From the NCBI RefSeq assembly GCF_001570365.1, contig NZ_BBYK01000054.1, positions 62,001 through 126,000 on the forward strand: 64,000 bases of DNA, in the 5' to 3' direction. Origin of the DNA: Microtetraspora fusca (GTDB lineage Bacteria > Actinomycetota > Actinomycetes > Streptosporangiales > Streptosporangiaceae). The notes under the pieces were generated by a model. That model was given only the letters and a program-made list of their open reading frames with translations. It did no database searches and was not told the DNA's origin. Shown here in pieces: positions 547 to 35,448 of the stretch (its first letter is position 1; every line of letters begins with the position of its first letter). Position numbers and translations under genes: made by a program.

Positions 547-1307
547 CGCGCCCGCTTTCCGAGCGCCCGGATGACGAGCAGCAGCACGCCCAGGCCGAGC
601 ACCCACGCCACGACGCCCTCGGTGACCGGGCCGACCCCGCCGAGCGGCCAGCCGCCCGCGCCGGACGTGCGCGGCAGCGTGCGGATGTACGCGATGACCG
701 AGTTGAGCGCGCCGTCGCTGAGCGTCCCCCGGCCGAACTTCGGCATCGCCCCCGGCCCGAGTCGTACGGCCTCGGCGATCTGGACGGGCGCCGTCCCCGT
801 CAGGGACGGGGCGTACCGCCCGGCGGGCAGCGCGCCGCCCTCGCCGGTGGAGGAGTGGCAGGCGGCGCAGTCGCGCAGGTAGATCGTCAGACCCTGCTGT
901 ACGTTCCCCTTGCCCACGGCCGGGATGGCGGGGCCGGGCCCGAACGAGGCGACGTAGGAGACCAGGGCGTCGATGTCCCGCCGGCCGAAGGCGGGAGGGC
1001 CGTGTCTCGGCAGCGCCCGCGGGTTCGGCAGCGGCATCCGGCCGGTGGAGAGCCAGAAGTCCGCGCTCGCCGCTCCCACGCCTTTCAGGCTCGGGCCGTA
1101 CTGGGAGCCCTCGCCCCGCTGGCCGTGGCAGCTCGCGCAACTGATCCCGTACAGCTGCCGCCCCCGGACCATCGGCGACGGCGACGGCGCGGGAGCTGAA
1201 ACCGCGGCCGGACGCGGACCCGCCGCGGGCGCGGCGAAGGAGAGCAGGGGCGCGGCGAGCAGTGGCACGGTGAGCAGGGGCGCGATGATCTGTCGCTGGG
1301 TCGGCAC
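543..1307 (-). CDS. qcrC: Diheme cytochrome c subunit of cytochrome bc1 complex
   Basis: The 254-residue protein has an N-terminal signal or anchor of about residues 8-32. It carries two cytochrome c domains, each with a CXXCH heme motif (CASCH near 60, CAACH near 155), and a C-terminal membrane helix of about 225-245 followed by basic residues. This is the QcrC layout of actinobacteria, where two hemes relay electrons from the Rieske protein to the oxidase without soluble cytochrome c. The GTG start was chosen because it falls 2 nt after the TGA of the upstream cytochrome gene. A longer reading would run through that gene. It is part of the ctaC-to-qcrA operon. Confidence 0.9.
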   Translation of the reverse strand: MPTQRQIIAPLLTVPLLAAPLLSFAAPAAGPRPAAVSAPAPSPSPMVRGRQLYGISCASCHGQRGEGSQYGPSLKGVGAASADFWLSTGRMPLPNPRALPRHGPPAFGRRDIDALVSYVASFGPGPAIPAVGKGNVQQGLTIYLRDCAACHSSTGEGGALPAGRYAPSLTGTAPVQIAEAVRLGPGAMPKFGRGTLSDGALNSVIAYIRTLPRTSGAGGWPLGGVGPVTEGVVAWVLGLGVLLLVIRALGKRAR

Positions 1308-24583: not shown

Positions 24584-25165
24584 TCAGTAGCGGCGGGCCC
24601 AGCGCGGCTCGACGCTCGTCCAGGCCTCCTCCCAGCGCCTCCGGTTGAGGCGCCGCATGGTGCGACGGAGGAGGCCGACGAGCATCGCCGGCACCGCGGC
24701 GAGCCCGGAGAGCGCCGCGAGGGCGACGATCGCGGTCGCCATGATGATCTCCACGGCACCGGCGGGCTCCCGGGACGGCTCGTTGTGCGCGTCGACCCAG
24801 ATGTTCACCGTCGTGCCGACGGTGGCGGTGCCCCTGACCGGGATCACCGCTTGGTGGACCCTGCCGTCGGGCGTCTGCCAGCGGGCGCCGGCCCGGAGCT
24901 CGGCCGTGCCGCCCAGCCGCGACGCCTGGCTGGAGGAGGGCTGCTCGTACAGCGTCGCCGTCACCCGATGCTTGCCCGCGTTCTCCGACTGCGCGGTCAC
25001 GTACGCCGTGCGGGTGGCGAAGTAGGTCCCCACAGGAATGATCGCGGTGAAGAGGACGAGCAGCGTGATGAGGATCATCGATTCCACATGATCGGCCGTG
25101 CGGCGCAGGGGATTGTGATCCAGGCCCAGGAACCGGGCGAGCCTTGCTGATATCGGCGTATTCAT
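24584..25165 (-). CDS. Rv1733c-like transmembrane protein
   Basis: A 193-residue protein with two helices (about 28-52 and 140-165) flanking an exported domain with a KHRVTATLYE...G.TVNIWVD pattern. N-terminal RFLGLDHNPLRRTADHVE is characteristic of the Rv1733c family. Rv1733c is a DosR-regulated latency antigen in M. tuberculosis and its function is unknown. The ATG has GGAGG 6 nt upstream. It is divergent from the hsp20 gene across a region holding several DosR-box-like sequences, so co-regulation is likely. Confidence 0.8.
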   Translation of the reverse strand: MNTPISARLARFLGLDHNPLRRTADHVESMILITLLVLFTAIIPVGTYFATRTAYVTAQSENAGKHRVTATLYEQPSSSQASRLGGTAELRAGARWQTPDGRVHQAVIPVRGTATVGTTVNIWVDAHNEPSREPAGAVEIIMATAIVALAALSGLAAVPAMLVGLLRRTMRRLNRRRWEEAWTSVEPRWARRY

Positions 25166-25240
25166 CCCATACCTCCACACGTACCCGACCGTAGGGAACC
25201 GGCCGAGGCCGGGCACAGTGCTGATCGGCCCGGCTCTGGA

Positions 25241-25254
25241 GGGACCTTCGTCCG
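25241..25254 (+). promoter_or_regulatory. DosR-box-like site, Rv1733c-like gene side
   Basis: GGGACCTTCGTCCG matches the GGGAC-N4-G-N-CC core of the DosR box with both half-sites present (GGAC/GTCC). It lies 76 bp upstream of the Rv1733c-like start. Confidence 0.6.
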
Positions 25255-25350
25255 TACCCGCGCGGCGCGGTGTCGCGGCGCGTACGGACGCGTCCGGTGC
25301 GGCGTCGAGGTGTCTCCGGGATGTCCGAGTAGGGGCGGATCGGTGGTGAG

Positions 25351-25400
25351 GGGACAACCGGTCGCGGCCGATGGTCCCTGCGGTCCGGGACCTGAGGCCC
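25351..25400. promoter_or_regulatory. Cluster of three DosR-box-like sites before hsp20
   Basis: Three 14-mers are arranged close together: GGGACAACCGGTCG (25351-25364, plus), GGGACCATCGGCCG (25365-25378, minus) and GGGACCTGAGGCCC (25387-25400, plus). The last lies about 65 bp upstream of the chosen hsp20 start. Multiple boxes in tandem are typical of strongly induced DosR promoters such as hspX. Confidence 0.65.
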
Positions 25401-25464
25401 TGACACGGCACACACTCCCGGTGATGTCATGGAAGGGAAGGCTCGCATGCGAAGGGAGTCGGAG

Positions 25465-25917
25465 ATGGGTGCCATCGCACGCAGGGAGTCCGGATGGCCC
25501 TTCCCGGATCTGCTGGAACTGCTGGAATCGCCGCTGATGGGGATGCGCTCGTCCGCCGAGCTGATCCGAATCGAGGACTACGTGGAAGGCGACCGGTACA
25601 TCGTACGGGCCGAGCTTCCGGGCATTGACCCATCGCAGAATGTCGACATCACCCTCACCAACGGGGTGCTCGAAATACGCGCGGAGAAGAGTGAGGAGAC
25701 GAGGGAGCGCCGCCGCTCCGAGTTCCACTACGGGTCGCTCTACCGCTCCATCACGCTTCCGCCGGATGTTCAGGAGGACGACGTCCAGGCCACGTACAAG
25801 GACGGTGTCCTCGAGGTGAGCGTCGGCCTGGAGAAGGAGAAGAAGCCCGAGAGGCGGAGGATCCCGATCCAGCGGACGCCGGGCGAGGAAGGCCCGCAGA
25901 CCGGAGAGGCGACCTGA
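25465..25917 (+). CDS. hspX: HspX-like small heat shock protein (alpha-crystallin family)
   Basis: A 150-residue Hsp20. The alpha-crystallin domain (about 35-128) includes RAELPGIDPSQNVDITLTNG and the family end motif KDGVLEVSV. The N-terminal FPDLLELLESP and IRIEDYVEGDRY segments follow M. tuberculosis HspX closely (144 residues there). Such holdase chaperones protect proteins in dormancy. ATG 25465 was chosen because AAGGGAG lies 6 nt upstream and length matches HspX. In-frame ATGs at 25429 and 25447 are alternatives. Three DosR-like boxes lie upstream and a terminator follows. Confidence 0.88.
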   Translation: MGAIARRESGWPFPDLLELLESPLMGMRSSAELIRIEDYVEGDRYIVRAELPGIDPSQNVDITLTNGVLEIRAEKSEETRERRRSEFHYGSLYRSITLPPDVQEDDVQATYKDGVLEVSVGLEKEKKPERRRIPIQRTPGEEGPQTGEAT

Positions 25918-25931
25918 CTCCGAGACAATCG

Positions 25932-25957
25932 GGGCGGGGGCCGGTGGGCTCCCGCCC
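25932..25957. terminator. Terminator between hsp20 and the CBS-BON gene
   Basis: A GGGCGGG/CCCGCCC stem with partly paired interior is followed by TTT, 15 bp past the hsp20 stop and in front of the converging CBS-BON gene. Confidence 0.7.
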
Positions 25958-26099
25958 TTTCACTGTCACGGGAGCGACGCCGTCCACGCGCCTCGGGCGT
26001 CCGGTCCGTCTGGCCGTGATCTGCTCGTGGCTGCGCCGAGCGCCCTGGCCTGCTGGGACGGCGCGTCGGCCTCGCGGGTGGACGCGCCGGGGAGTGCAG

Positions 26100-26801
26100 T
26101 CAGCGGCGGCTCCACCGTGAGGTGTCGTCCTCTTCCCACTCCAGCTTGTCGACGACGTCGATCACGCCGTGGACCCGGCGGGCCATGGCGACCACGATGG
26201 CGGCGTCGCTGCGCCGGGTCGTCCACCCGGTCAGCGTGACGACCCCCTGACGCACGTCCGCCTCGATCCGCGAGTTCTCCGCCCACAGCGAGTGCCCGAC
26301 GACGTCCTCGTATATCTCCTTGGCGAGGTCGGCGTCGCTGCGTACGAACACCCGGAGCATGTCCTGGCGGCTGATGATGCCGATGAGGACGCCGTTCGCG
26401 TCCACGACGGGCAGCCTCTTCACCCCGTGCTGGTCCATCAGCCGGATCGCCGCGACGACGGAGGCGCCGGGCGGGACGGTCACCGCCGGGGACGTCATCA
26501 GCTCCGCGGCGGTCTCGCCGTGGGCGGTGTCCCTGATGCTGTGGTTCTTCTCGGTGAGGCGGTGCCGCAGGCGGGCGCGCAGCGGCGGATGGTAGCCCTC
26601 TCCGTAGTACTGCTCCTTGAACTGCTCCTTGCGCAGCAGATCGGCCTCGGAGATGACCCCGATCACGTGGCCCTCGTCATCCACCACCGGTACGGCGCTC
26701 ACACTGTGCGCGATGAGCACTTCCGCGACGTCCTTGAAAGAGGTGCCTCCGTCGACGGACACCACATGCGGGGCCATGACGTCCCTCACTTTGACGCGCA
26801 T
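26100..26801 (-). CDS. CBS-pair plus BON domain protein
   Basis: A 233-residue protein. The two CBS motifs lie at about 1-65 (VRDVMAPHVVSVDGGTSF...DEGHVIGVISEADLL) and 88-150 (ELMTSPAVTVPPGA...LIGIISRQDMLRVF). A BON domain lies at about 155-222 (EADVRQGVVTLTGWT). CBS pairs bind adenosine ligands. The protein is a relative of M. tuberculosis hypoxic response protein Hrp1, with BON added. GGAGG lies 6 nt before the ATG. A strong DosR-like box is 80-93 bp upstream, making it a likely DosR target. Confidence 0.85.
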   Translation of the reverse strand: MRVKVRDVMAPHVVSVDGGTSFKDVAEVLIAHSVSAVPVVDDEGHVIGVISEADLLRKEQFKEQYYGEGYHPPLRARLRHRLTEKNHSIRDTAHGETAAELMTSPAVTVPPGASVVAAIRLMDQHGVKRLPVVDANGVLIGIISRQDMLRVFVRSDADLAKEIYEDVVGHSLWAENSRIEADVRQGVVTLTGWTTRRSDAAIVVAMARRVHGVIDVVDKLEWEEDDTSRWSRR

Positions 26802-26880
26802 CACGTGCCTCCAAACACGGTCGGGAAAACGGTGGGAATGCCCGACCACCATCCAAGTGGCGCGGGGCGGCGGCGGGCAG

Positions 26881-26894
26881 AGGTCGGAAGTCCC
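26881..26894 (-). promoter_or_regulatory. DosR-box-like site before the CBS-BON gene
   Basis: On the minus strand GGGACTTCCGACCT fits the GGGACTT-N2-G-N-CC core, preceded by TTTC as in many DosR boxes. It lies 80-93 bp upstream of the CBS-BON ATG. Confidence 0.65.
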
Positions 26895-27000
26895 GAAACG
26901 GAGGGCACTTCGGACGTAGAGCGCAGCTCATGCCCGCCCCGGCCTCCCACCGCGGCAGGCCTCGGAGCGTACGGTCGGCGGCACGCGGGTTCCTCCTCCT

Positions 27001-28011
27001 CTACGGCAGGAGCACGGCCGCGCCCTCGACGCGGTCGGCGGCGAGATCGGCCAGGGCCTGGTCGGCGGCCTCGAAGGGGTAGGGCGTGGTCGCGACCCGG
27101 GGAGGGTGCAGCGCGGCGAGTTCGAGGAACGCCCGCCCGTCCGCGCGGGTGTTCGCCGTGACGCTGCGCAGGGTCCGCTCCTGGAACAGGTGGCGTTCGT
27201 AGTTGAGCACCGGGATGTCGGTCAGGTGGATCCCCGCCACGGCGAGCGTCCCGCCGCGGTCCAGGGCCGCGAGGGCGGGCGGCACGAGGTCGCCCACCGG
27301 CGCGAACAGGATGGCCGCGTCCAGCGGCTCGGGCGGCGGGTCCCATGCCCCGCCCGCCGACCGCGCGCCCAGCTCCAGGGCCAGCTCCCGCGCCTGCTCC
27401 GATCGCGTCATCACGTGCACGGCGGAGCCCTGGGCGATGGCGACCTGCGCCGTCAGGTGGGCCGAGGCGCCGAAGCCGTAGATCCCGAGACGGCCCCCGG
27501 GCGGCAGGTCGGCGCGGAGCAGGGCCCGATAGCCGATGATCCCCGCGCACAGCAGCGGCGCGAGCGTCTCGGCGGCGCCGTCGTCCGGCAGGGGGTACGC
27601 GAAGCCCGCCGGCACGGTGACGTACTCGGCGTAGCCGCCGTCGGCGTCCCAGCCGGTGTAGGTGGACGCCGGGCAGAGGTTCTCCGCTCCGCGCAGGCAG
27701 TAGCGGCAGCGTCCGCACGTCGAGCGCAGCCAGGCCACGCCCACCCTGGCGCCGAGCAGCGGGGCCTCCGCTCCGGGGCCGTGCGCGGCCACCCTGCCGA
27801 CGACCTCGTGGCCGGGGACGGTCCTCGGCCGCCGCGGAGGCAGGTCGCCCTCCGCCAGATGGAGGTCCGTACGGCAGACCGCGCACGCCTCGACACGTAC
27901 GAGCAGCTCGCCGGGGCCGGGGGTGGGGATCGGGAGCCGCGTCCGTTCGAGGGGACGCGTGGCGATCGGGCCCGGACGGGCGACCACCCAGGCGTCCATC
28001 CCGGCGTCCAT
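27001..28011 (-). CDS. Zinc-dependent alcohol dehydrogenase
   Basis: A 336-residue MDR-family dehydrogenase. Catalytic zinc ligands are visible in [12 protein letters not shown] and GHEVVG. The four structural-zinc cysteines are in [15 protein letters not shown] (about 95-110). The Rossmann dinucleotide loop [11 protein letters not shown] lies near 177. It probably oxidises or reduces alcohols and aldehydes with NAD(P), helping redox balance when oxygen is low. ATG 28011 has AGAGGA 9 nt upstream. A TTG at 28020 is an alternative. The gerW gene is 115 bp upstream on the same strand, so they may share a transcript. Confidence 0.87.
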
Positions 28012-28126
28012 GATGGTCAATCCTCTCGTCCTCCAGGTGCGTGGCGGTGTTCGGTACGCCGTTCCGGCGCAGTCGGGGGAGTCCTGACAGTGGGGTAGGC
28101 CCTCATGGCCGGCCGGGGAGCCGCGG

Positions 28127-28474
28127 TCAGCGTCTCCTCGCCCGGAGGCGCGCGATCGTCCGGATGGTCAACAGCGCGACCACCAGGACGAACTGGCCTC
28201 CTATGATCACCTTGTTGACGTCCACCACGGGTTGCCAGCGCACGGTGCCGTCTTTGATCACGAACACTCCGGCCGGGCTCGCGCCGAGGCCGAATCCGGC
28301 GCCCAGGCCCTCCGCGGGGTTGTCGCCCTCCTGCTTGCCGCTGCCGCCCCCTCCGCCTCCCGCGACCCGGGCGACCGGGATGACCGTTATGCCGTCCTGA
28401 ACGATCGGTTCGCCGAACACGCGTTTGACCGTGGCTTTGTCCTGTGCTTGCTCGATCATCTGGATGATGTCCAT
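28127..28474 (-). CDS. GerW/YtfJ family protein
   Basis: A 115-residue protein of the Spore_YtfJ (GerW) family. It has [19 protein letters not shown], then a Gly-rich segment (GGGGGGSG), [21 protein letters not shown] and a final hydrophobic helix of about 86-106 with a basic tail. In Bacillus the relative is spore-associated. In actinomycetes such proteins occur in stress and dormancy clusters, and the biochemical role is unknown. AAAGGGGG precedes the ATG. A DosR-like box is 14 bp upstream of the start. Confidence 0.82.
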
Positions 28475-28487
28475 CACGACCCCCTTT

Positions 28488-28501
28488 GCGGCGAATGTCC
28501 C
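28488..28501 (-). promoter_or_regulatory. DosR-box-like site between gerW and usp
   Basis: GGGACATTCGCCGC on the minus strand fits the DosR core. It lies between the divergent gerW and usp genes. A weaker left half-site GGGACCTGTGAGGG at 28572-28585 (plus) lies closer to usp. Confidence 0.5.
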
Positions 28502-28607
28502 TCTATCCATTCCCGCGTACGGCGACCGCGAAAGGCGGAAAACCGCACCTCCGGACGTGGCCGGGTACACAGGGACCTGTGAGGGTTCGCGATGAAGGAG
28601 AGAAAAG

Positions 28608-29462
28608 ATGATCATCGTTGGTGTCGACGGTTCCGCGGCGGGGCTGGAGGCCGCCGCCTGGGCGGCTCGTGAGGCGGCGCTGCGCGGCGCCCCTTTGCGC
28701 GTGGTCCACGCGATGCCGAAGTGGGCCTCCGAGATGCCTCCCCATGGTCCGTACACGGACGTGGCGAGGTGGATGCGCGAAGGGGCCGACTCCGTCGTCG
28801 CCGAGGCGTTGGACCGGATCGGCGAGCAGGAAGGCGACGTCGCCGTCGAGTCCGCCCTCTTGCCCGGGGACGCCCGGACCGCGTTGATCAAGGCCGCGAA
28901 GGAGGCGGAGCTGCTCGTGGTCGGCAACCACGGGCTCGGCGGCTTCCGCGGGCTTCTGCTGGGCTCCGTGGCGCTTGGTGTGGCCGGGAGGGCGCCGTCC
29001 CCTGTCGTCGTGGTCCGCACGCTCCCGGCGGAGGGCCGCCGCAGGATCGTGGTGGGCGTGGACGGGTCGCCGTCGAACGCCGACGCCGTCGAGTTCGCGT
29101 TCGCCGAGGCCGCCCTTCAGGACGTGGAACTGCACGCCGTCCACGCATGGCGGGGGCTGGTCGCCGGCGGCGGCTTCGAGGCCGCCGCGTCCGCGCAGGA
29201 GGAGGACGGCCTGCGCGCCATGCTGTCCGAGGCGCTGGCGGGCCCGGCGCGCCGCCATCCCGAGGTGAAGGTCACCGAGCACGTCGTCAACGGGCACCCG
29301 GTCGAGGTGCTGAAGGAGGCGTCGACCGGGGCGGGGCTCCTCGTCGTCGGGTCCCGGGGGCGCGGCGACCTGGCCGGGCTGGTGCTCGGCTCCGTCAGCA
29401 ACGCTCTCCTCCAGCACGCCGACTGCCCGGTGGCCGTGACCCCGCCGCCCCGGGAGCCGTGA
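28608..29462 (+). CDS. Tandem universal stress protein
   Basis: A 284-residue protein with two Usp domains (about 1-140 and 145-280). Each begins IIVGVDGS or IVVGVDGSPSN. The second ATP-binding loop is well kept (VVGSRGRGDLAGLVLGSVS). The first is GNHGLGGFRGLLLGSV. This is the layout of M. tuberculosis Rv2623, a DosR-regulated ATP-binding protein linked to growth arrest. GAAGGAG precedes the ATG. DosR-like sites lie upstream in the gap shared with gerW. Confidence 0.9.
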   Translation: MIIVGVDGSAAGLEAAAWAAREAALRGAPLRVVHAMPKWASEMPPHGPYTDVARWMREGADSVVAEALDRIGEQEGDVAVESALLPGDARTALIKAAKEAELLVVGNHGLGGFRGLLLGSVALGVAGRAPSPVVVVRTLPAEGRRRIVVGVDGSPSNADAVEFAFAEAALQDVELHAVHAWRGLVAGGGFEAAASAQEEDGLRAMLSEALAGPARRHPEVKVTEHVVNGHPVEVLKEASTGAGLLVVGSRGRGDLAGLVLGSVSNALLQHADCPVAVTPPPREP

Positions 29463-29547
29463 CCTCGCACGGCGCGATCCAGGCATGTACGGGCCTCCGC
29501 CCAGGGGAGTGATTCACCGCGCCCGGGAGCCGTGAGACGCGAACGGA

Positions 29548-29576
29548 GGCGGGGCCGGTTGTTCACCGGACCCGCC
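29548..29576. terminator. Bidirectional terminator between usp and the DUF1876 gene
   Basis: An 11-position stem with one mismatch (GGCGGG-g-CCGG against CCGG-a-CCCGCC) around a 7-nt loop lies between the converging genes. Confidence 0.65.
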
Positions 29577-29610
29577 CCCGTTCCAGATTCCGCGGGCGAC
29601 CCGAGAAGGC

Positions 29611-29877
29611 TCAGCGGGACCGGGACGCCGCGGCGAACTGGGCCACGTCCTCGGCGCCGTCCTCGATCAGTTTGGCCGCCAGGTCGGACAGGGCGCGCCC
29701 TGCCGCCAGCTCGTCCCCGATCTCCGGCACCGGCCGGTCATGCGGGTTACGCCGGGCGTGTGCCACGCTCTCGTGCCGGGTGCCGTCACCCGCGTGCAGC
29801 ACGGCCCTGGCCGTGGTCACCTGGTCGGTCTCGTCCTCGTCGATGAAGATCTCGACGTTCCATTCCTTGCGCTCCAT
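29611..29877 (-). CDS. Rv1738-like DUF1876 protein
   Basis: An 88-residue protein with KEWNVEIFIDEDETDQVTTA, then L.AGDGT and a C-terminal helix VPEIGDELAAGRALSDLAAKL, which are the marks of the DUF1876 family. Rv1738 is among the most strongly induced DosR genes in M. tuberculosis and folds like ribosome hibernation factors, so a role in quieting translation has been proposed. GGAGG lies 11 nt before the ATG. The best DosR-like box of the window is 52-65 bp upstream. Confidence 0.85.
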   Translation of the reverse strand: MERKEWNVEIFIDEDETDQVTTARAVLHAGDGTRHESVAHARRNPHDRPVPEIGDELAAGRALSDLAAKLIEDGAEDVAQFAAASRSR

Positions 29878-29928
29878 AGCGAACACACCTCCCGATTTCA
29901 GCGTCCCCTTGGTCCATGGCGAACGGAA

Positions 29929-29942
29929 GGGACTTTTGTCCT
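29929..29942 (+). promoter_or_regulatory. Near-consensus DosR box before the DUF1876 gene
   Basis: GGGACTTTTGTCCT is close to the palindromic DosR consensus (GGGACT-N3-AGTCCC type). It lies 52-65 bp upstream of the DUF1876 start in the gap after the HTH-flavin protein gene, which gives the DUF1876 gene its own promoter. Confidence 0.75.
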
Positions 29943-29981
29943 GGCATGTCGCTATTTGTGACTTTTGTGGAGAATTTACTG

Positions 29982-30650
29982 TCAAAAGCCGCGGATCCGG
30001 CGGCCGCTGATGGTGTGCGGCACGATCCTGATGTACGCCTCGCGCACGCCTCCGGCCCAGGGCTCCACCCCGGTGCCGGCCGCCTCCTCCAACTCGTCCG
30101 CCGAGACGTGGTGCGCGGGCCCCTGGACGAGGACGCTCCACCCCTCGCGGTTGACCTCGTCGATGTGGTCGACCTCGAAGCCGATCGTCAGCTCGACGCC
30201 CTCCAAACCGGTGCGCACCGCCTCCTCCATCGGCCCGCCGTACTGGGTGCGGAAGACGATCGCGCCCTTGTGGACCTTGAAATTCACGGGGAGGACCGTC
30301 GGCCCGGAGTGCCCGCTGAAGGCGACCCTGCCCACGCCGCCCGGCTCGATCAGGCGCATGCACTCCTCGGGGTCGAGCGCGTGCAGCACCGGGTGCGCCG
30401 CGGCCGGTCCCTGGCCGGGAGGCCGGTCCATGCCGGCGCCGAGCAGATCGTCGGTGGTGGTCTCCAGCGCCGCGGCGAGCCGCAGCAGCGCCTCCTCCGT
30501 GATCGAGGCGGCGGACTCCTCGACGTACTCCACGAAACCGGGCGCCATGCCCGCGCGCTCGGCCAGATCCTCACGGCTGAGTCCCAGGCGCTTGCGGTGA
30601 TGGGCGATGCGGCGGCCAAGGTCACCGGGCGAGACCGTTCGGCGGGACAT
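29982..30650 (-). CDS. XRE-type HTH fused to a PNPOx-like flavin split barrel
   Basis: A 222-residue protein. Residues about 10-65 form an XRE/Cro helix-turn-helix (LGRRIAHHRKRLGLSREDLA, then FVEYVEESAASIT). Residues about 88-215 form a pyridoxamine-phosphate-oxidase-like split barrel (VGRVAFSGHSGPTVLPVNFKV, GWSVLVQGPAHHV), a fold that binds FMN, F420 or heme. The combination suggests a redox- or cofactor-responsive DNA-binding protein. GAGGGGAG precedes the ATG. It is divergent from a CBS-BON gene across a region with a palindrome, a DosR-like box and a GC hairpin. Confidence 0.8.
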   Translation of the reverse strand: MSRRTVSPGDLGRRIAHHRKRLGLSREDLAERAGMAPGFVEYVEESAASITEEALLRLAAALETTTDDLLGAGMDRPPGQGPAAAHPVLHALDPEECMRLIEPGGVGRVAFSGHSGPTVLPVNFKVHKGAIVFRTQYGGPMEEAVRTGLEGVELTIGFEVDHIDEVNREGWSVLVQGPAHHVSADELEEAAGTGVEPWAGGVREAYIRIVPHTISGRRIRGF

Positions 30651-30740
30651 CGGCTCCCCTCTCTTCATCGGGGGTCATGACACCTTCAGAAGCGACGGTA
30701 CGCCGTGCCCGCCGCCGTCGTCGCGATACCCCTGCCAAGA

Positions 30741-30762
30741 CCGCTTATACCGCTCTAAGCGG
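30741..30762. promoter_or_regulatory. Palindrome between the HTH-flavin gene and CBS-BON gene
   Basis: Perfect 7-bp arms CCGCTTA and TAAGCGG flank an 8-nt spacer. It lies 9 bp left of the DosR-like box. It is a candidate operator for the adjacent HTH-flavin protein. Confidence 0.5.
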
Positions 30763-30770
30763 GGCATTCT

Positions 30771-30784
30771 GGGACCTAAGCCCT
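30771..30784 (+). promoter_or_regulatory. DosR-box-like site before the second CBS-BON gene
   Basis: GGGACCTAAGCCCT carries both half-sites of the DosR box. It lies 90 bp upstream of the CBS-BON ATG and about 120 bp from the divergent HTH-flavin gene. Confidence 0.65.
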
Positions 30785-30805
30785 GCGTGCGGAGGACGTA
30801 CGCCG

Positions 30806-30831
30806 CTGCCCGGGGGCTCCGCCCCGGGCAG
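30806..30831 (+). promoter_or_regulatory. GC hairpin in the CBS-BON leader
   Basis: A perfect 10-bp stem (CTGCCCGGGG/CCCCGGGCAG) with a GCTCCG loop lies 43 bp before the CBS-BON ATG and 22 bp after the DosR-like box, hence in the probable 5' UTR. It could stabilise the mRNA or attenuate it. Confidence 0.5.
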
Positions 30832-30873
30832 ACCCTGGTCGGGAGCGAGGGAGCGGCAGCGAGGGAGGACGCC

Positions 30874-31536
30874 ATGTCCGTCACCGTCAAAGACGTCATG
30901 GGACGTGTGGCCATCGCGGTCCAGGAGGACGCGGGCTTCGCGGACATCGCCGCCGCGATGGAGAGGTTCAGGGTGGGCGCGGTGGCGGTGATCGACGCCG
31001 AGCGCCGGCCCGTCGGCGTCGTCTCGGAGGACGACCTGCTGCTCCACGAGACCGGCGCGCCCGGAGGTCCCGGCGCGCTCCTGGACCCGGGCAGGCGGCG
31101 GCGCGAGCAACGCAAGGCGATCGGCGTCACCGCCGCCGAGATCATGACCACGCCGCCGGTGACCGTGACCCCGGGAACCCCCGTACGGGTCGCCGCGCGG
31201 CTGATGCACGAGAAGCGGATCAAGCAGCTTCCCGTGGTCGACCCGGTCAGCGGGCGCATCGCCGGGACCGTCCACCAGTCCGACCTGCTCCGGGTCTTCA
31301 ACCGGCCGGTGGAGGACATCCGCGCCGACATCGCCGAGGTGCTCGGGCGCGAGGCCGACCCGGAGTGCCTGGACGTCCTCATCGAGTGCGGCATGGTCAC
31401 CATCCGGGGCCGGGTGCGCAGGCGCTCGCAGATCTGCCACCTCGTCGAGGCGGTACGTGCGGTCGAGGGCGTGATCGGCGTGACGACCGAGATCACCTTC
31501 GCCAAGAACGACCTCGTGGTGCCGCCGCTGCACTGA
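30874..31536 (+). CDS. CBS-pair plus BON domain protein
   Basis: A 220-residue protein with CBS motifs at about 1-65 (VKDVMGRVAIAVQEDAGF...RRPVGVVSEDDLL) and 88-148 (EIMTTPPVTVTPGT...GTVHQSDLLRVF). A BON domain lies at about 150-215 (CGMVTIRGRVRRRSQ). It is a paralogue of the CBS-BON gene at 26.1-26.8 kb, sharing domain order and the ...LLRVF junction. GAGGGAGG precedes the ATG. Its promoter region carries a DosR-like box. It likely senses adenosine nucleotides during energy limitation, which is inference from the CBS family. Confidence 0.85.
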   Translation: MSVTVKDVMGRVAIAVQEDAGFADIAAAMERFRVGAVAVIDAERRPVGVVSEDDLLLHETGAPGGPGALLDPGRRRREQRKAIGVTAAEIMTTPPVTVTPGTPVRVAARLMHEKRIKQLPVVDPVSGRIAGTVHQSDLLRVFNRPVEDIRADIAEVLGREADPECLDVLIECGMVTIRGRVRRRSQICHLVEAVRAVEGVIGVTTEITFAKNDLVVPPLH

Positions 31537-31604
31537 TGCCAGAGCCCGAGGCCACGGGGCCCGGTGTTCCGCCGAGGCGCGGCGACGCCGGGCGTCCTCA
31601 AGCA

Positions 31605-31669
31605 CCGGTCACTCGCCGCGGTCGACCTTGAGGCCAGGGCCCCGGTCACTCCCCGCGGTTGACCTTGAG
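31605..31669. repeat. Imperfect duplication of the dosR 3' end
   Basis: A 28-nt segment at 31642-31669, covering the last codons and stop of dosR, is repeated at 31605-31632 with 26 of 28 identities and a 37-bp offset. The downstream copy would encode the same tail (LKVDRGE and stop, against LKVNRGE). Confidence 0.85.
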
Positions 31670-32287
31670 CCGCGCGGCCAGGGCCGCCGCCTGCGTGCGC
31701 CGCTGCATGTTGAGCTTGCTCAGCAGGTTGGACACGTAGTTCTTGACGGTCTTCTCGGCCAGGTAGAGCCGCTCGCCGATCTGCCGGTTGGTCAGCCCCT
31801 CGCCGATCAGCTCCAGGATGTGCCGCTCCTGCTCCGACAGGGCGGCGAGCGGATCGCGCTTGTCGGCCTGCTCGCGCAGGCGCTGCAGCATGGTCGCCGT
31901 CGTCTGCGGGTCGAGCAGCGACTGCCCGGAGGCCACCGTCCGTACCGCGCCGACCAGGTCGGAGCCGTGGATCTGCTTGAGCACGTATCCGGCGGCCCCG
32001 GCCATCACGGCGTCGAACAGCGCCTCGTCGTCGGCGAAGGACGTCAACATGAGGCAGGCCAGCTCGGGCATCCGCGAGCGCACCTCCCGGCAGACGTCGA
32101 CGCCGTTGCCGTCGGGCAGCCGTACGTCGAGGACGGCGACGTCCGGCTTGAGCGCCGGGATGCGGGCGATCGCGGACTCGGCCGTGCCCGCCTCGCCGAT
32201 GACCTCGATGTCGTCCTCGGCCTCGAGCAGGGCCGCCACACCGCGCCGCACGACCTCGTGATCGTCCAGGAGGAATACACGAATCAT
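31646..32287 (-). CDS. dosR: DosR/DevR response regulator
   Basis: A 213-residue NarL-family response regulator. The receiver domain has D8/D9, the phosphorylation site D54 (AVLDVRLPDGNG), T82 and K104. The LuxR-type HTH (about 147-205) has EKTVKNYVS with K179, K182 and N183, and T198. All of these share the numbering of M. tuberculosis DosR, whose C-terminal FAEKTVKNYVSRLL region it nearly repeats. That factor switches on dormancy genes under hypoxia, NO or CO. No sensor kinase is next to it. The start is ATG with a weak SD. A GTG three codons upstream is possible. DosR-like boxes upstream suggest autoregulation. Confidence 0.93.
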   Translation of the reverse strand: MIRVFLLDDHEVVRRGVAALLEAEDDIEVIGEAGTAESAIARIPALKPDVAVLDVRLPDGNGVDVCREVRSRMPELACLMLTSFADDEALFDAVMAGAAGYVLKQIHGSDLVGAVRTVASGQSLLDPQTTATMLQRLREQADKRDPLAALSEQERHILELIGEGLTNRQIGERLYLAEKTVKNYVSNLLSKLNMQRRTQAAALAARLKVNRGE

Positions 32288-32360
32288 GTGATGCACGCTA
32301 GCGTCCGATTCGCCTGGATGGGTAGGCGGCCGGGACGAGGCCGGTCGCTCCGCCACGCGG

Positions 32361-32396
32361 GAGGCGGAGGTCCCGGAATCATGGGACGTTCGGCCG
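32361..32396. promoter_or_regulatory. Two DosR-box-like sites between dosR and usp2
   Basis: GGGACCTCCGCCTC (32361-32374, minus strand) lies 74-87 bp upstream of dosR. GGGACGTTCGGCCG (32383-32396, plus) lies 63-76 bp upstream of the second usp gene. Both match the DosR core and each faces the gene it could control. Confidence 0.65.
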
Positions 32397-32458
32397 CTGG
32401 GCGGCCGAGAGCCGGATGATGGAATGGAACTTCACCGGCCCCGAGAAGGAGACGCGCC

Positions 32459-33349
32459 ATGACCGCACCCATCGTCGTCGGAGTGGACGGTTCCCCGCAG
32501 TCGACCGCGGCGGTGGACTGGGCCGCCGACGACGCGTCCCGCCGGGATGCGCCGCTGAAGATCGTGCACGTCCGCGAGCCGTGGGCGCACCGGTACCCCT
32601 TCCACGGCGTCGAGGGGTACGACCAGTCGCTCTCCGAACACTGCGAGGGTGTGATCAACGCGGCCGCGCAGCGGGCGCGGGAACGGGTCCCCGGGCTCTC
32701 CGTCACCGCGGAGCTGGCCTCCGGCACGGTCGTGGAGAAGCTGAAGGCCGAGTCCCGGAAGGCCGCCGCCATGGTGGTCGGCAGCCGGGGCATGGGCGGC
32801 TTCGCCGGGCTCGTGCTCGGCTCCGTCGGATTGGGCCTGGCAGGTCACGCCGCCTGCCCCGTCGTGATCGTGCGCGGACCGGGCAAGGACGTGCGCGGGC
32901 CGGACGAGGAGGCGGGGCGGGAGATCGTCGTCGGCTTCGACGGCTCCGAGAACTCCGAGGTCGCCATGCGGTACGCGTTCGAGGAGGCCGCGCTGCGCGG
33001 GGTCCCGGTGCGGGTGGTCCACGCCTGGCAGGTGCCCGCGTTCACCCCGTTCGCGATCGGCTACACGCGGGCGCTGGACGAGGTCTTCGAGCAGAGCGCG
33101 GACACCGCCCGCCGGCGGGTCGCGCCGTGGCACGACAAGTACCCCGACGTGCGGGTGGAGCAGTCCTTCGTCTGCGGGCACCCGATCGCGGTCCTGTCGG
33201 AGTTCTCGCGCCAGGCCGACCTTCTCGTGGTCGGATCCCGTGGCCTCGGCGCGTTCGGCTCCGCCGTGCTGGGATCGGTCGGCCACGGCGTCCTGCACCG
33301 GGCTCACTGCGCCGTCGCCGTCGTGGGCCGGGGAGAGGAGGAGCGATGA
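32459..33349 (+). CDS. Tandem universal stress protein
   Basis: A 296-residue protein with two Usp domains (about 1-142 and 155-292). Both nucleotide-binding loops are intact: VVGSRGMGGFAGLVLGSVG and VVGSRGLGAFGSAVLGSVG. Each domain starts IVVGVDGSPQ or IVVGFDGSEN. It is the second Rv2623-like protein of the cluster. GAGAAGGAG precedes the ATG. It overlaps the next CBS gene (ATGA) and lies divergent from dosR. Confidence 0.92.
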   Translation: MTAPIVVGVDGSPQSTAAVDWAADDASRRDAPLKIVHVREPWAHRYPFHGVEGYDQSLSEHCEGVINAAAQRARERVPGLSVTAELASGTVVEKLKAESRKAAAMVVGSRGMGGFAGLVLGSVGLGLAGHAACPVVIVRGPGKDVRGPDEEAGREIVVGFDGSENSEVAMRYAFEEAALRGVPVRVVHAWQVPAFTPFAIGYTRALDEVFEQSADTARRRVAPWHDKYPDVRVEQSFVCGHPIAVLSEFSRQADLLVVGSRGLGAFGSAVLGSVGHGVLHRAHCAVAVVGRGEEER

Positions 33350-33846
33350 GCGTGGAGGACCTGACCGCGGAGCAGATCATGACCCGTGTGCTCGTCACGG
33401 TCACCGCGGAGGAGTCGCCGCTGATGGCGTGGGAGTTGATGCGCCGCGCCGACGTCCACCACCTGCCCGTCGTGGACGACACCTGCCACGTCCTCGGCAT
33501 CCTGACCAGGGAGGACGTCGCCGCCACCTGGAGCGGCGGCGGCCCGGACGAGCACTCGCGCCGCCAGGTGCGCACCCTCCTCGGCCGGCGTCGCCTGCCG
33601 AAGGTGGGGCCGGATCACACGCTGTCGCGGATCACCTGCGTCATGCTCGACGTGGGCTGCGACGCCGTACCCGTCGTCTCCGCGGCGGGCAGGCTGCTCG
33701 GCCTGATCACGGTCAGCGACGTGCTGAAGGCGGTGGCGGGCCGCGCCTGCCGCGACGAGGAGCGGGGCGAGCAGGGCCGGACACGGGAGAGCGGCGAGGT
33801 GCGGACCGGGCTGTTCCACCTCAACCCCGTCCTCCCGCCCGACTGA
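33346..33846 (+). CDS. CBS-pair domain protein
   Basis: A 166-residue protein made of two CBS motifs (about 8-60 EQIMTRVLVTVTAEESP...HVLGILTREDVA, and 80-135 LPKVGPDHTLSR...RLLGLITVSDVLKAV) and a charged tail. There is no BON domain. It starts ATG overlapping the usp2 stop (ATGA), so the two proteins are made together. It likely binds AMP, ATP or a related nucleotide as an energy sensor. Confidence 0.85.
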   Translation: MSVEDLTAEQIMTRVLVTVTAEESPLMAWELMRRADVHHLPVVDDTCHVLGILTREDVAATWSGGGPDEHSRRQVRTLLGRRRLPKVGPDHTLSRITCVMLDVGCDAVPVVSAAGRLLGLITVSDVLKAVAGRACRDEERGEQGRTRESGEVRTGLFHLNPVLPPD

Positions 33847-33890
33847 GCGGTACCGCCGGCGCCGCCGGGGGACCAACGGCGCGCCCCGCA

Positions 33891-33904
33891 CCGACCTTCG
33901 GCCC
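33891..33904 (+). promoter_or_regulatory. Partial DosR-box-like site before the flavodoxin gene
   Basis: CCGACCTTCGGCCC keeps the right half-site and centre of the DosR core but lacks the leading GG. It ends 49 bp before the flavodoxin ATG. A weaker match GGGACCAACGGCGC is at 33869-33882. Confidence 0.4.
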
Positions 33905-33933
33905 TGACCGCCCTCCGTGCCCGTCCGGAGACT

Positions 33934-33950
33934 GATCACCGGAGGTGATC
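33934..33950 (+). promoter_or_regulatory. Hairpin that sequesters the flavodoxin Shine-Dalgarno site
   Basis: Perfect 7-bp arms GATCACC and GGTGATC around GGA. The right side contains the full-length SD GGAGGTGATC, and the left arm copies the 16S rRNA anti-SD (GAUCACC). The start codon is 3 nt further on, so the fold would hide the ribosome site. Confidence 0.55.
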
Positions 33951-33953
33951 TTG

Positions 33954-34439
33954 ATGGCACGGGTACTGGTCGCGTACGGCTCCACGAGGGGGGCCACGGC
34001 CGAGATCGCGGAATGGATCGGCCAGGCGCTGCGCGAGGAGGGCCACCACGCCGACGTCGTCGCGGCGGCGGACGCCCGCGAGGTGCGGGGACACGACGTG
34101 GTGATCCTCGGGGGCGCGCTCTACGCCCGGCGGTGGCACAAGGACGCCCGGAGGTTCGCCCTCCGCCACGCGGCGACCCTGCGGGCTCTGTCGGTGTGGC
34201 TGTTCAGCAGCGGCCCGCTGGACGACTCGGCCGTGGAGGAGGACATCCCGCCGACGCCGAACGTCGCCCGCTGGTGCGTCCGGCTGGAGGCCCTCGGCCA
34301 CGCCACGTTCGGAGGGCGGCTGGCGTCCGACGCCACCGGCTTCGCCGCGTCCGCGATGGCCAGGACCATGGCCGGGGACTTCCGCGACCGCGGGCAGATC
34401 ACGGCGTGGGCGAAGGCGGTCGCCCGCGAGCTGGGGTGA
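33954..34439 (+). CDS. Flavodoxin-domain protein (HemG-like)
   Basis: A 161-residue flavodoxin-fold protein. The FMN phosphate loop is VAYGSTRGATAEIAEWIG at the N-terminus, followed by VVILGGALYARRWHKDARRF and SSGPLD, the pattern of protoporphyrinogen oxidase HemG/MioC-type proteins. It probably carries electrons through FMN, linked to a menaquinone pool or heme synthesis. The exact role is open. The ATG follows an extended SD inside a palindrome, and a partial DosR-like box lies upstream. Confidence 0.82.
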   Translation: MARVLVAYGSTRGATAEIAEWIGQALREEGHHADVVAAADAREVRGHDVVILGGALYARRWHKDARRFALRHAATLRALSVWLFSSGPLDDSAVEEDIPPTPNVARWCVRLEALGHATFGGRLASDATGFAASAMARTMAGDFRDRGQITAWAKAVARELG

Positions 34440-34473
34440 CGAACCGGCCGCCCGCCGGGGTAGGAGCCCCCGC

Positions 34474-35448
34474 ATGGGGCACCTTCCGGCGTACGCGCCG
34501 ATGACGGCCCGGCTGGGGGAGCTGCCGCCGGAGTCGCAGGACGCGTTGTTCGGCTTCGAGATGAAGTGGGACGGCGTGCGCGCCCTCGGCTATGTCGAGG
34601 ACGGGCGGCTGCGGCTGATCTCGCGCAACGGGCTGGACGTCACGGTCGCCTATCCCGAGCTGGGGCCCCTCGCCGGCGCCGTCGTGGACGAGTCCGTGCT
34701 GGACGGGGAGATCGTCGCGTTCGGACCCCGGGGGCTGCCCAGCTTCGCCGCCCTCCAGCCGCGGATGCACCAGCGCGACCCCGCCAAGATCAGACTGCTG
34801 GCGCGGGCAACTCCGGTGACGTACCTGATCTTCGACATCCTGCACGTCGGGGGTGGATCGACGATCCGCCGGCCGTACGTCGAGCGGCGCGCACTGCTCG
34901 ACCGCACGGTGGTGGCGGGGGAGCGCTGGGACGTGCCGCCGTACTCCCCCGGAGGCGGCGCGACCGCCTTCGAGACCAGCCGCGAGCTGCTCCTGGAGGG
35001 CGTGGTCGCCAAGCGGCTGACCTCGACGTACCAGCCGGGGCGGCGCAGCGCGGACTGGATCAAGATCAAGCACTTCCGTACCCAGGAGGTGGTGATCGGC
35101 GGGTGGAAGCCGGGCGAGGGCAGACGCGCCAAGGGCATCGGCTCACTGCTGCTCGGCGTCCACGACCCGGAGGGACGGCTGGTCTACGCCGGACACGTGG
35201 GGACCGGCTTCACCGAGGCGATGCTCGCCGATCTGGGGGCGCTGCTGGCGCCGCTCGCCCGCGAGACCAGCCCGTTCGCGGACGAGGTGCCGCGCGAGCA
35301 CGCCCGCCACGCCCGCTGGACCGCCCCCGCCCTCGTCGGCGAGGTGCGGTACGCCGAGTGGACCGCCGACGGCCGGCTCCGCCACCCGAGCTGGCGCGGC
35401 CTGCGGCCGGACCGCCGCGCCGAGGACGTGGTCCGCGAGCCGGGCTGA
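34474..35448 (+). CDS. ATP-dependent DNA ligase, LigD-ligase-domain type
   Basis: A 324-residue ligase. The adenylation lysine lies in motif I FEMKWDGVRAL near 31. Motif III LDGEIVAF, motif IV LEGVVAKR and motif V DWIKIKH are present. The OB-fold part carries EVVIGGWKPGEGRRA and YAGHVGTGF. These are the hallmarks of the stand-alone ligase domain of bacterial NHEJ ligase LigD (LigC-like). Polymerase and nuclease domains are absent and no Ku gene is nearby. GGAG lies 7 nt before the ATG. It follows the flavodoxin gene by 34 bp, probably in one transcript. Confidence 0.88.
   Translation: MGHLPAYAPMTARLGELPPESQDALFGFEMKWDGVRALGYVEDGRLRLISRNGLDVTVAYPELGPLAGAVVDESVLDGEIVAFGPRGLPSFAALQPRMHQRDPAKIRLLARATPVTYLIFDILHVGGGSTIRRPYVERRALLDRTVVAGERWDVPPYSPGGGATAFETSRELLLEGVVAKRLTSTYQPGRRSADWIKIKHFRTQEVVIGGWKPGEGRRAKGIGSLLLGVHDPEGRLVYAGHVGTGFTEAMLADLGALLAPLARETSPFADEVPREHARHARWTAPALVGEVRYAEWTADGRLRHPSWRGLRPDRRAEDVVREPG

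What the first reader, a model, noticed from the sequence alone, without database searches (positions are those of the whole stretch)
24584..35448. A DosR-type dormancy regulon packed into one locus of a non-mycobacterial actinomycete
A 213-residue DosR orthologue keeps D54, T82, K104, K179, K182 and N183 at the same positions as in M. tuberculosis. Around it are relatives of many DosR targets (Rv1733c, HspX, Hrp1-type CBS, Rv2623-type USP, Rv1738). Genes not in the classic set are also present: GerW, HTH-flavin protein, HemG-like flavodoxin, LigD-like ligase and zinc ADH. About ten intergenic 14-mers fit the DosR-box core. In M. tuberculosis these targets are scattered, so a compact island points to a self-contained survival programme similar to the S. 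coelicolor OsdR region. The extra members may link redox control and DNA end repair to dormancy.
Basis: partly seen in the sequence, partly recalled or inferred. Interest (0 to 1): 0.88.

Follow-up and report, generated by a model that had tools for sequence, protein, structure and literature searches.

The report
Split DosR-type dormancy gene cluster
This stretch of a soil actinomycete's chromosome holds a genuine relative of the tuberculosis bacterium's low-oxygen dormancy switch with many of its usual target genes, but it is a known kind of system and is not self-contained, because the sensor that should turn it on sits in a second cluster elsewhere in the genome.

Summary
The finding is largely real. 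The 213-aa regulator at 31646-32287(-) and M. tuberculosis DevR/DosR are best matches both ways (124/211 identical; 272 bits; next regulator in this genome 147). Around it lie Rv1733c-, HSP20-, Rv1738/Rv2632c-, tandem-USP- and CBS-family genes. A box matrix trained only on sites outside the window scores >=9 at 7 of 1,998 intergenic positions of the island, against 3 of 54,763 in background stretches and 0 of 6,805 in the rest of the window. Boxes often come in pairs exactly 22 bp apart, also the commonest spacing in 79 other actinomycete DosR loci. The reading needs correction. The island is not self-contained: the only DosS/DosT-type kinase found in the genome is on another contig, in a second box-bearing cluster with phosphoketolase, acetate kinase, PPOX and USP; another palindromic box precedes rtcB. 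Kinase and DosR lie on different contigs in 5 of 5 genomes of this clade, but within 1.5 kb in 39 of 80 DosR loci. Zinc ADH and PPOX are already in the published OsdR regulon, the names GerW and HemG fail curated cut-offs, and the ligase link is weak. Verdict: a new member of the DosR/OsdR kind, with a split layout and a probable phosphoketolase arm.

The parts
24584..25165 (-). Rv1733c-family membrane protein, 193 aa
   Evidence: NF050032 118.3 bits over cut-off 80; start re-set by SD and homology; box 25240-25255 lies 75 bp upstream
25240..25255 (.). DosR box AGGGACCTTCGTCCGT, score 18.3, upstream of Rv1733c
   Evidence: box kept in G002, G003 and G041
25364..25401 (.). Tandem DosR boxes 25364-25379 (10.8) and 25386-25401 (12.8), 22 bp apart, upstream of HSP20
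   Evidence: pair also in G003, one box >=5 in G001 and G041
25447..25917 (+). HSP20/alpha-crystallin small heat-shock protein
   Evidence: PF00011 69.1 bits; box >=10 before HSP20 in 3 of 3 genes tested in other-species DosR loci
26100..26801 (-). CBS-CBS-BON protein 1
26880..26917 (.). Weak tandem boxes (3.8 and 0.2), 22 bp apart, upstream of CBS-BON 1
   Evidence: stronger pairs in G001 (12.5/5.2), G003 (7.6/5.2) and G041 (6.5/5.6), none >=5 in G002
27001..28011 (-). Zinc-binding alcohol dehydrogenase, TIGR02822 family; no own box
   Evidence: 547.9 bits over cut-off 283.5; no box >=5
28127..28474 (-). Spore_YtfJ-domain protein (fails the GerW equivalog cut-off); no own box
28608..29462 (+). 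Tandem-domain universal stress protein 1; only a half box seen by eye near 28569, no box >=5
29611..29877 (-). Rv1738/Rv2632c-like small protein
   Evidence: PF08962 92.9 bits; PDB 4wpy Rv1738 E 1e-10
29928..29943 (.). DosR box AGGGACTTTTGTCCTG, score 15.7, 51 bp upstream of the Rv2632c-like gene
   Evidence: kept in G001 and G003, degraded in G002 and G041
29982..30668 (-). XRE-type HTH + pyridoxamine-oxidase-like (PPOX) protein
   Evidence: PF12900, PF13560
30770..30807 (.). Tandem DosR boxes (10.1 and 5.4), 22 bp apart, between HTH-PPOX and CBS-BON 2
   Evidence: pair kept in G002, G003 and G041, single box >=5 in G001
30874..31536 (+). CBS-CBS-BON protein 2
31646..32287 (-). DosR/DevR orthologue, 213 aa
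32360..32397 (.). Tandem boxes (0.8 and 7.0), 22 bp apart, between dosR and USP2
   Evidence: both boxes score 7.0-8.8 at 22 bp in G001, G003 and G041, one box 5.1 in G002
32459..33349 (+). Tandem-domain universal stress protein 2
33346..33846 (+). CBS-pair protein overlapping USP2 (operon)
33868..33905 (.). Tandem DosR boxes (9.1 and 9.2), 22 bp apart, upstream of flavodoxin-ligase
   Evidence: pair in G041, single box >=5 in G001 and G003, absent in G002
33954..34439 (+). Flavodoxin_5-domain protein (fails the HemG equivalog cut-off)
34474..35448 (+). LigD-type ATP-dependent DNA ligase domain protein, 34 bp after the flavodoxin
   Evidence: TIGR02779 260.6 bits over 227.75; best PDB match 1vs0, Mtb LigD (Rv0938) ligase domain

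Best explanation
24584-35448 is the regulator-bearing half of a DosR/OsdR-type regulon in a Streptosporangiaceae actinomycete (Microtetraspora clade). The proposed mechanism has three steps. (1) A DosS/DosT-type GAF-GAF histidine kinase, encoded in a second cluster on another contig, senses O2/NO/CO or redox at a heme in its first GAF domain and phosphorylates DosR on D54 (inferred from conserved residues and co-occurrence). (2) DosR~P dimers bind GGGAC-N4-GnCC(C) palindromes, often as cooperative pairs exactly two helical turns (22 bp) apart, upstream of about six promoter regions in the window, including its own, and of the kinase cluster and rtcB (sites and spacing are shown; binding is inferred). 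(3) The induced set gives protein and ribosome protection (HSP20, Rv1738-like, USPs, CBS proteins) and flavin-linked redox proteins, plus, from the second cluster, phosphoketolase and perhaps acetate kinase, which would make ATP from sugar phosphates when respiration fails (inferred).
For: Best matches both ways: the window protein's best solved-structure match is DevR at 272 bits, next 155; DevR's best match in this genome is the window protein at 271.6 bits, next 147. Local box enrichment by three counts: exact core, strict core (5 sites in the island and 3 in the kinase cluster out of 59 strand hits genome-wide), and a matrix trained outside the window (7 of 1,998 against 3 of 54,763, odds ratio 64, Fisher 7e-9). 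Boxes largely kept in orthologous loci of four related genomes. 22-bp pairing: 4 of 6 window anchors, 11 of 22 in four orthologous loci, 57 of 186 in 79 other DosR loci (3.2 expected if uniform), against 3 of 94 background anchors and 0 or 1 in each of 30 column-shuffled matrices. Kinase: one match in the genome at E<=1e-30, DevS/DosT GAF hits of 165-176 bits with the aligned His and Tyr of the GAF pocket and the phospho-His kept. Co-occurrence in 150 family genomes: both 134, DosR only 2, kinase only 3, neither 11; Fisher 1.8e-12. Phosphoketolase: a box >=10 upstream of 6 of 6 genes testable in other-species DosR loci, against 92 of 897 unassigned genes.
Against: No expression or binding data. 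ADH, YtfJ-domain protein and USP1 have no box >=5; CBS-BON 1 boxes are weak in this genome. In other-species loci boxes >=10 are not above the rate of unassigned genes for ADHs (2 of 10), flavodoxins (1 of 3) and acetate kinases (1 of 4), and only marginally for the kinase gene (10 of 52). The core motif is not enriched genome-wide. Training sites come from four promoters (one of the 14 sites lies in a called gene in G041, probably a start called too early) and were picked with the same core, so the matrix tests location, not the core. Two sites >=9 outside the island in the window lie inside genes, one of 12.1 at 24139 just left of it. The 79 loci and the 150 genomes are not phylogenetically independent, and the genome searches scored only the top 20 or 9 candidates per genome.
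Confidence: 0.87

Rival explanations
1. A self-contained survival island: the compact locus alone senses and executes dormancy.
For: Regulator and many targets are together and share boxes.
Against: No kinase found among the island's genes; the only DosS/DosT-type kinase found is on another contig with its own boxes, and DosR and kinase are on different contigs in 5 of 5 genomes of the clade. A further palindromic box lies before rtcB.
Confidence: 0.07
2. A general stress-gene neighbourhood (USP, CBS, HSP20) that collected near an unrelated NarL-type regulator; the boxes are chance in GC-rich DNA.
For: The genome has 96 matches to the regulator at E<=1e-10, and the core motif is common genome-wide (799 hits).
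Against: Best matches both ways with DevR, local intergenic box enrichment, 22-bp pairing, conservation in related genomes.
Confidence: 0.02
3. DosR here works mainly as a developmental regulator (sporulation timing), as deletion phenotypes suggest for S. coelicolor OsdR, with hypoxia as a minor input.
For: OsdR deletion accelerates sporulation and alters many developmental genes, and OsdR bound ssgB and whiE DNA without a predicted site (PMC5069765, parts 1-4 of 9 read). A Spore_YtfJ-domain gene lies in the island.
Against: The YtfJ-domain gene has no box >=5. The kinase keeps the aligned DevS-type GAF pocket residues. Developmental genes of this genome were not tested here, so this rival is not excluded.
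Confidence: 0.15

Closest known systems
DosR/DevR regulon of M. tuberculosis (DevS, DosT, DevR)
   Same: Orthologous regulator (124/211 identical), DevS/DosT-type kinase, same box core, close-packed boxes, Rv1733c-, Rv1738-, USP-, HSP20- and rtcB-type genes with boxes. PMC3029386 (passages) describes close packing of sites; PMC5309233 (passages) lists nine scattered blocks including Rv2623-Rv2631, with Rv2631 as RtcB.
   Different: Sites found here concentrate in two clusters plus rtcB; no linked kinase; phosphoketolase and acetate kinase in the second cluster; two of the three CBS proteins carry a BON domain (Hrp1 without one is recalled).
OsdR/OsdK core region SCO0167-SCO0219 of Streptomyces coelicolor (PMC5069765, parts 1-4 of 9 read plus a term search)
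   Same: A compact island around the regulator rich in USPs, with Zn-dehydrogenases, a PPOX protein and a box upstream of the regulator itself.
   Different: osdR-osdK form an operon there; box consensus AGGGCCGATCGGCCCT rather than GGGAC-rich; nitrate reductase and PPDK there; the paper's text has no 'phosphoketolase', 'CBS', 'flavodoxin' or 'ligase'.
DosR loci of 79 other actinomycetes (L039-L117)
   Same: Within the fetched flanks of all 80 loci (L038 included): USP in 34, PPOX in 34, CBS in 15, phosphoketolase in 7, against 0 of 17 background stretches each; same boxes, and 22 bp the commonest spacing.
   Different: The kinase lies within the flanks in 46 of 80 loci and within 1.5 kb in 39, whereas the Microtetraspora clade has it on another contig.

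Membership tests
DosR/DevR response regulator | Orthology to M. tuberculosis DevR | tested here: met
   Best match both ways (PDB one way, this genome the other), 124/211 identical, 272 and 271.6 bits; M. tuberculosis's other regulators were not searched
DosR/DevR response regulator | Phospho-Asp54, T82, K104 and recognition residues K179, K182, N183 | tested here: met
   Positions checked; roles other than D54 and T82 recalled
DosR/DevR response regulator | Phosphorylation-dependent binding and activation under hypoxia/NO | not testable with these tools
   Needs protein and RNA work
DosR regulon locus | GGGAC-type palindromic boxes upstream of targets above background | tested here: met
DosR regulon locus | Closely spaced paired boxes for cooperative binding | tested here: met
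   22-bp pairs at 4 of 6 anchors; Rv1733c and Rv2632c boxes have no partner at 22 bp; literature passages
DosR regulon locus | Cognate DosS/DosT-type heme GAF kinase in the genome | tested here: met
   One orthologue at C38, unlinked; heme binding itself not testable
Self-contained island | Sensor kinase within the locus | tested here: not met
GerW | TIGR02874 equivalog cut-off 116.3 | tested here: not met
   21.8 bits; only the Spore_YtfJ domain PF09579 is met
HemG | NF008316 equivalog cut-off 142 | tested here: not met
   28.1 bits
LigD-type NHEJ ligase domain | TIGR02779 cut-off 227.75 | tested here: met
   260.6 bits; ligase domain only; the genome's Ku gene lies on another contig, C41
HspX orthologue | Closer to M. 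tuberculosis Hsp16.3 than to other HSP20s | tested here: inconclusive
   HSP20 family only; no direct comparison with HspX made
Hrp1-type CBS protein | CBS pair without added domain (recalled for Hrp1) | tested here: inconclusive
   26100 and 30874 genes carry a BON domain, 33346 gene does not; not compared with Hrp1

The most novel reading that the evidence does not exclude
The split DosR regulon contains a metabolic feed-forward loop: DosR~P switches on phosphoketolase in the kinase cluster, whose product acetyl phosphate both yields ATP through acetate kinase and directly phosphorylates DosR (acetyl phosphate is the in vitro phosphodonor used for OsdR, PMC5069765), so that carbon flux could lock the dormant state on even without the sensor. 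DosR-linked phosphoketolase would be a recurrent actinomycete feature (found in 7 of 80 DosR loci, with a box upstream in 6 of 6 that could be tested). Against it: acetyl phosphate also acetylates proteins, and two cited titles report that acetylation of DosR (one names K182, kept here) affects its activity (reference list seen), so the same product could act as a brake.
Probability: 0.2. Interest if true: 0.75.

Novelty: new member of a known kind. Interest (0 to 1): 0.5.

Why it matters
It shows that the dormancy switch best known from the tuberculosis bacterium is present in 136 of 150 genomes sampled from this family of actinomycetes, with the same DNA boxes and a measurable promoter rule (two palindromes 22 bp apart). 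The rule and matrix can be used to read DosR regulons from sequence in harmless bacteria. They also point to an energy-metabolism arm (phosphoketolase, perhaps acetate kinase) that my three searches on it did not find connected with DosR in print: one search gave one paper, a review of protein acetylation whose passages name phosphoketolase and DosR separately; no paper held all four terms; none of the 8 listed of 30 holds 'phosphoketolase'.

Tried and rejected
A regular-expression search for histidine kinases near DosR found 1 and then 6 of 109 loci and suggested that DosR is mostly an orphan. It was wrong: it missed the IAKDLHD form. A tblastn with the real kinase found it in 46 of 80 loci, and only that count is used.

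The search for near-consensus 14-mers with up to 2 mismatches (269 hits against 365 for the control) was too loose to be informative beyond the kinase cluster.

Treating the 46 other strict-motif sites as scattered regulon members was rejected: 37 of 46 lie inside called genes, and of the 9 intergenic ones only that before rtcB is a full palindrome. The ligase gene of L100 has a strong box upstream (17.8), but it lies between that gene and a divergent gene that looks like a PPOX protein, so it is not counted as support.

The strong claim that DNA end repair is part of the regulon was rejected: G002 lost the flavodoxin and has no box >=5 before the ligase. Whether the 22-bp spacing is already in print for M. 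tuberculosis could not be settled: the two papers most likely to say so are not held, and six held papers searched for box or spacing terms gave no figure in the passages shown. I therefore claim no novelty for the spacing.

Rows dropped: of the 7 loci with phosphoketolase near DosR, L058 was not testable because the gene runs off the end of the locus. L038 was left out of the 79-locus tests because it belongs to the window's clade. L210 and the ligase and Ku loci L211-L214 were fetched but not analysed further. The 17 background stretches were chosen by hand at round coordinates, not at random.


Full report
What is there. The window is G000:C53:62001-126000 of a 9.02-Mb genome. The closest named DosR locus is from Microtetraspora sp. 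NBRC 16547 (99% DosR identity), where every island gene is found in the same order. My gene calls (starts corrected) and Pfam/NCBIfam scans give, from left to right: Rv1733c family (24584-25165, -), HSP20 (+), CBS-BON (-), TIGR02822 Zn-ADH (-), Spore_YtfJ-domain protein (-), tandem USP (+), Rv1738/Rv2632c-like (-), HTH-PPOX (-), CBS-BON (+), DosR (-), tandem USP and CBS pair (+), flavodoxin-domain protein and LigD-type ligase (+). A STAND-LuxR regulator and then a threonyl-type tRNA synthetase gene follow to the right.

The regulator. It aligns without gaps to DevR 3c3w over residues 1-211, 272 bits; the next solved structure, VraR, scores 155. Searching the genome with the DevR sequence returns this gene first at 271.6 bits and the next at 147. 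124 of 211 residues are identical.

Boxes in the window. Exact GGGAC-N4-G-N-CC: 13 in 64 kb, 8 in the island, 7 of those intergenic. The genome holds 799, so 0.96 would be expected in the island (P about 8e-6). The motif is not enriched genome-wide (reversed control 965). With the stricter GGGACNWWNGNCC the genome has 59 strand hits (reversed control 74): 5 sites fall in the island, 3 sites (5 strand hits) in one 3-kb stretch of contig C38, 1 in the gene left of the island, and 46 sites (48 strand hits) elsewhere. All 46 were fetched: 37 lie inside called genes and 9 are intergenic. One of the 9, GGGACTTTCGTCCC, is a full palindrome beginning 67 bp before rtcB, which is followed by an archease gene (PF01139, PF01951). 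Rv2631 of the M. tuberculosis DosR regulon is annotated RtcB (PMC5309233, passages).

An independent test of location. A palindromic matrix was trained on 14 sites, all outside the window (kinase clusters of five genomes and the rtcB promoter). At score >=9 it finds 7 sites in 1,998 intergenic positions of the island (taken to 35658) and 0 in its 9,078 genic positions. It finds 0 in 6,805 intergenic positions of the rest of the window (plus 2 inside genes there), and 3 in 54,763 intergenic and 12 in 284,982 genic positions of 17 background stretches (340 kb, chosen by hand). Fisher P is 7e-9 against background intergenic and 3e-5 against the rest of the window. The training sites were chosen with the same core, so this tests where sites lie, not the core. 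Results against: USP1, YtfJ-domain protein and ADH have no site >=5, CBS-BON 1 scores only 3.8 and 0.2 in this genome, and a site of 12.1 lies inside the gene left of the island.

Conservation and pairing. In the orthologous loci of G001, G002, G003 and G041 the sites are largely kept. Exceptions: the Rv2632c box is degraded in G002 and G041, the CBS-BON 1 boxes are below 5 in G002, and G002 has lost the flavodoxin gene with the boxes before it. Second sites lie exactly 22 bp from the first at HSP20, HTH-PPOX/CBS-BON 2, dosR/USP2, flavodoxin, and weakly CBS-BON 1; the Rv1733c and Rv2632c boxes have no such partner. Counting one anchor per promoter, the best partner within 12-70 bp is at 22 bp for 4 of 6 anchors in the window, 11 of 22 in the four orthologous loci and 57 of 186 in 79 other DosR loci (3.2 expected if uniform); in background it is 3 of 94 anchors anywhere and 1 of 13 intergenic. 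Thirty column-shuffled matrices on the same 79 loci gave 0 or 1 each, from 4-40 anchors. In those 79 loci sites >=10 number 201 in 278,658 intergenic against 28 in 1,146,107 genic positions. The loci are related, so P values overstate independence. Cooperative binding to tandem or closely packed sites is described for DevR, with T82 needed for it (PMC4973870 and PMC3029386, passages); one promoter with a single clear site and only a weak putative second one is also described (PMC5360333, passages).

The missing kinase. No kinase was found among the island's genes. A DevS-like kinase from a Nocardiopsis DosR locus (L073) has one match in this genome at E<=1e-30, C38:494028-495671. The 549-aa protein is GAF-GAF-HisKA_3-HATPase. 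Its first GAF domain matches DevS and DosT structures at 165-176 bits, with the histidine of GHPPMRSFLGVP and the tyrosine of NLYLTEK aligned and the phospho-accepting histidine present (their roles are recalled). It sits in a cluster of Zn-dehydrogenase, two PPOX proteins, a membrane protein that I read as DoxX-like (no Pfam match), the kinase, phosphoketolase, acetate kinase and USP. Boxes of 22.2 and 18.2 lie before PPOX/DoxX-like, 21.9 before phosphoketolase and 10.6 before the USP. By gene order and length the cluster is present in G001, G002, G003 and G041; by the exact core the phosphoketolase box is kept in 5 of 5 genomes and each of the two PPOX/DoxX-like boxes in 4 of 5.

DosR and kinase are on different contigs in 5 of 5 genomes of the clade; the places and contig lengths put them at least about 54 kb apart in each. 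In 80 DosR loci tblastn finds the kinase within the fetched flanks in 46 (32 of the 55 with full flanks), within 1.5 kb in 39 and within 3 kb in 42. These include two Sphaerisporangium loci (L050, L055) where DosR, HSP20 and Rv2632c lie near thrS as here. By parsimony the kinase moved away in this clade (inference). In 150 genomes of the family, DosR (E<=1e-55) and kinase (E<=1e-90) are both present in 134, DosR only in 2, kinase only in 3, neither in 11 (tallied; Fisher 1.8e-12). Those searches scored only the best 20 and 9 candidates per genome, so a few absences may be false.

Which genes belong. Over the 79 other loci, a box >=10 lies in intergenic DNA within 250 bp upstream of 6 of 6 phosphoketolase genes, 24 of 33 PPOX, 3 of 7 HTH-PPOX, 26 of 51 USP, 3 of 3 HSP20, 9 of 15 DoxX-like, 8 of 16 CBS, 32 of 81 DosR and 10 of 52 kinase genes, against 92 of 897 genes not assigned to these families. 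It is not above that rate for ADH (2 of 10), flavodoxin (1 of 3), acetate kinase (1 of 4) or Rv2632c (0 of 2). Divergent genes share boxes and are both counted. Phosphoketolase lies near DosR in 7 of 80 loci; the seventh, L058, runs off its contig and could not be tested.

Relation to what is known. The OsdR paper (PMC5069765, parts 1-4 of 9 read, plus a term search) already describes a compact regulon island round osdR with USPs, Zn-dehydrogenases (SCO0199, SCO0179), a PPOX protein (SCO0214) and a box before osdR itself. So compactness, ADH and PPOX are not new. New here, to the extent of the searches made, are the Streptosporangiaceae member, the two-cluster layout with the kinase unlinked, and phosphoketolase as a box-bearing member. 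DosT is unlinked in M. tuberculosis too (recalled), so an unlinked kinase is not unprecedented.

Mechanism, shown and inferred. Shown: orthology, box positions, pairing, conservation, co-occurrence. Inferred: heme sensing, phosphotransfer, DNA binding, induction under low oxygen, and the role of phosphoketolase in ATP supply. That phosphoketolases make acetyl phosphate is stated in PMC6456759 (passages).

Noticed in passing
L148/L209 (G000:C54, box at C54:31707-31720): A full palindromic DosR-type box beginning 67 bp before rtcB, followed by an archease gene and, convergently, an RNA-ligase-domain gene; parallels Rv2631 (RtcB) in the M. tuberculosis DosR regulon.
   Followed up: partly
L123 13409-19901, L124 and L215 (G000:C38): Second box-bearing cluster with DosS/DosT-type kinase, two PPOX, DoxX-like protein, phosphoketolase, acetate kinase and USP, present in four related genomes.
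   Followed up: yes
L119 13558-15184 (G002; coordinates of the locus oriented as the window): Flavodoxin gene deleted between CBS protein and ligase, with only its 3' end left and no DosR box >=5 before the ligase.
   Followed up: yes
window 35659-38034: 791-aa STAND-ATPase/LuxR-type regulator between the island and the tRNA synthetase gene, without a DosR-type box >=5 upstream.
   Followed up: no
L121 16806-16821 (G041; coordinates of the locus oriented as the window): A box scoring 12.6 beyond the STAND regulator in G041 with no counterpart >=5 in the window.
   Followed up: no
window 24139-24154: A box-like site scoring 12.1 inside the gene left of the island (23485-24546).
   Followed up: no
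window 543-1172 (-): Protein with a CASCH motif, so a likely c-type cytochrome, among other genes at the left end of the window.
   Followed up: no
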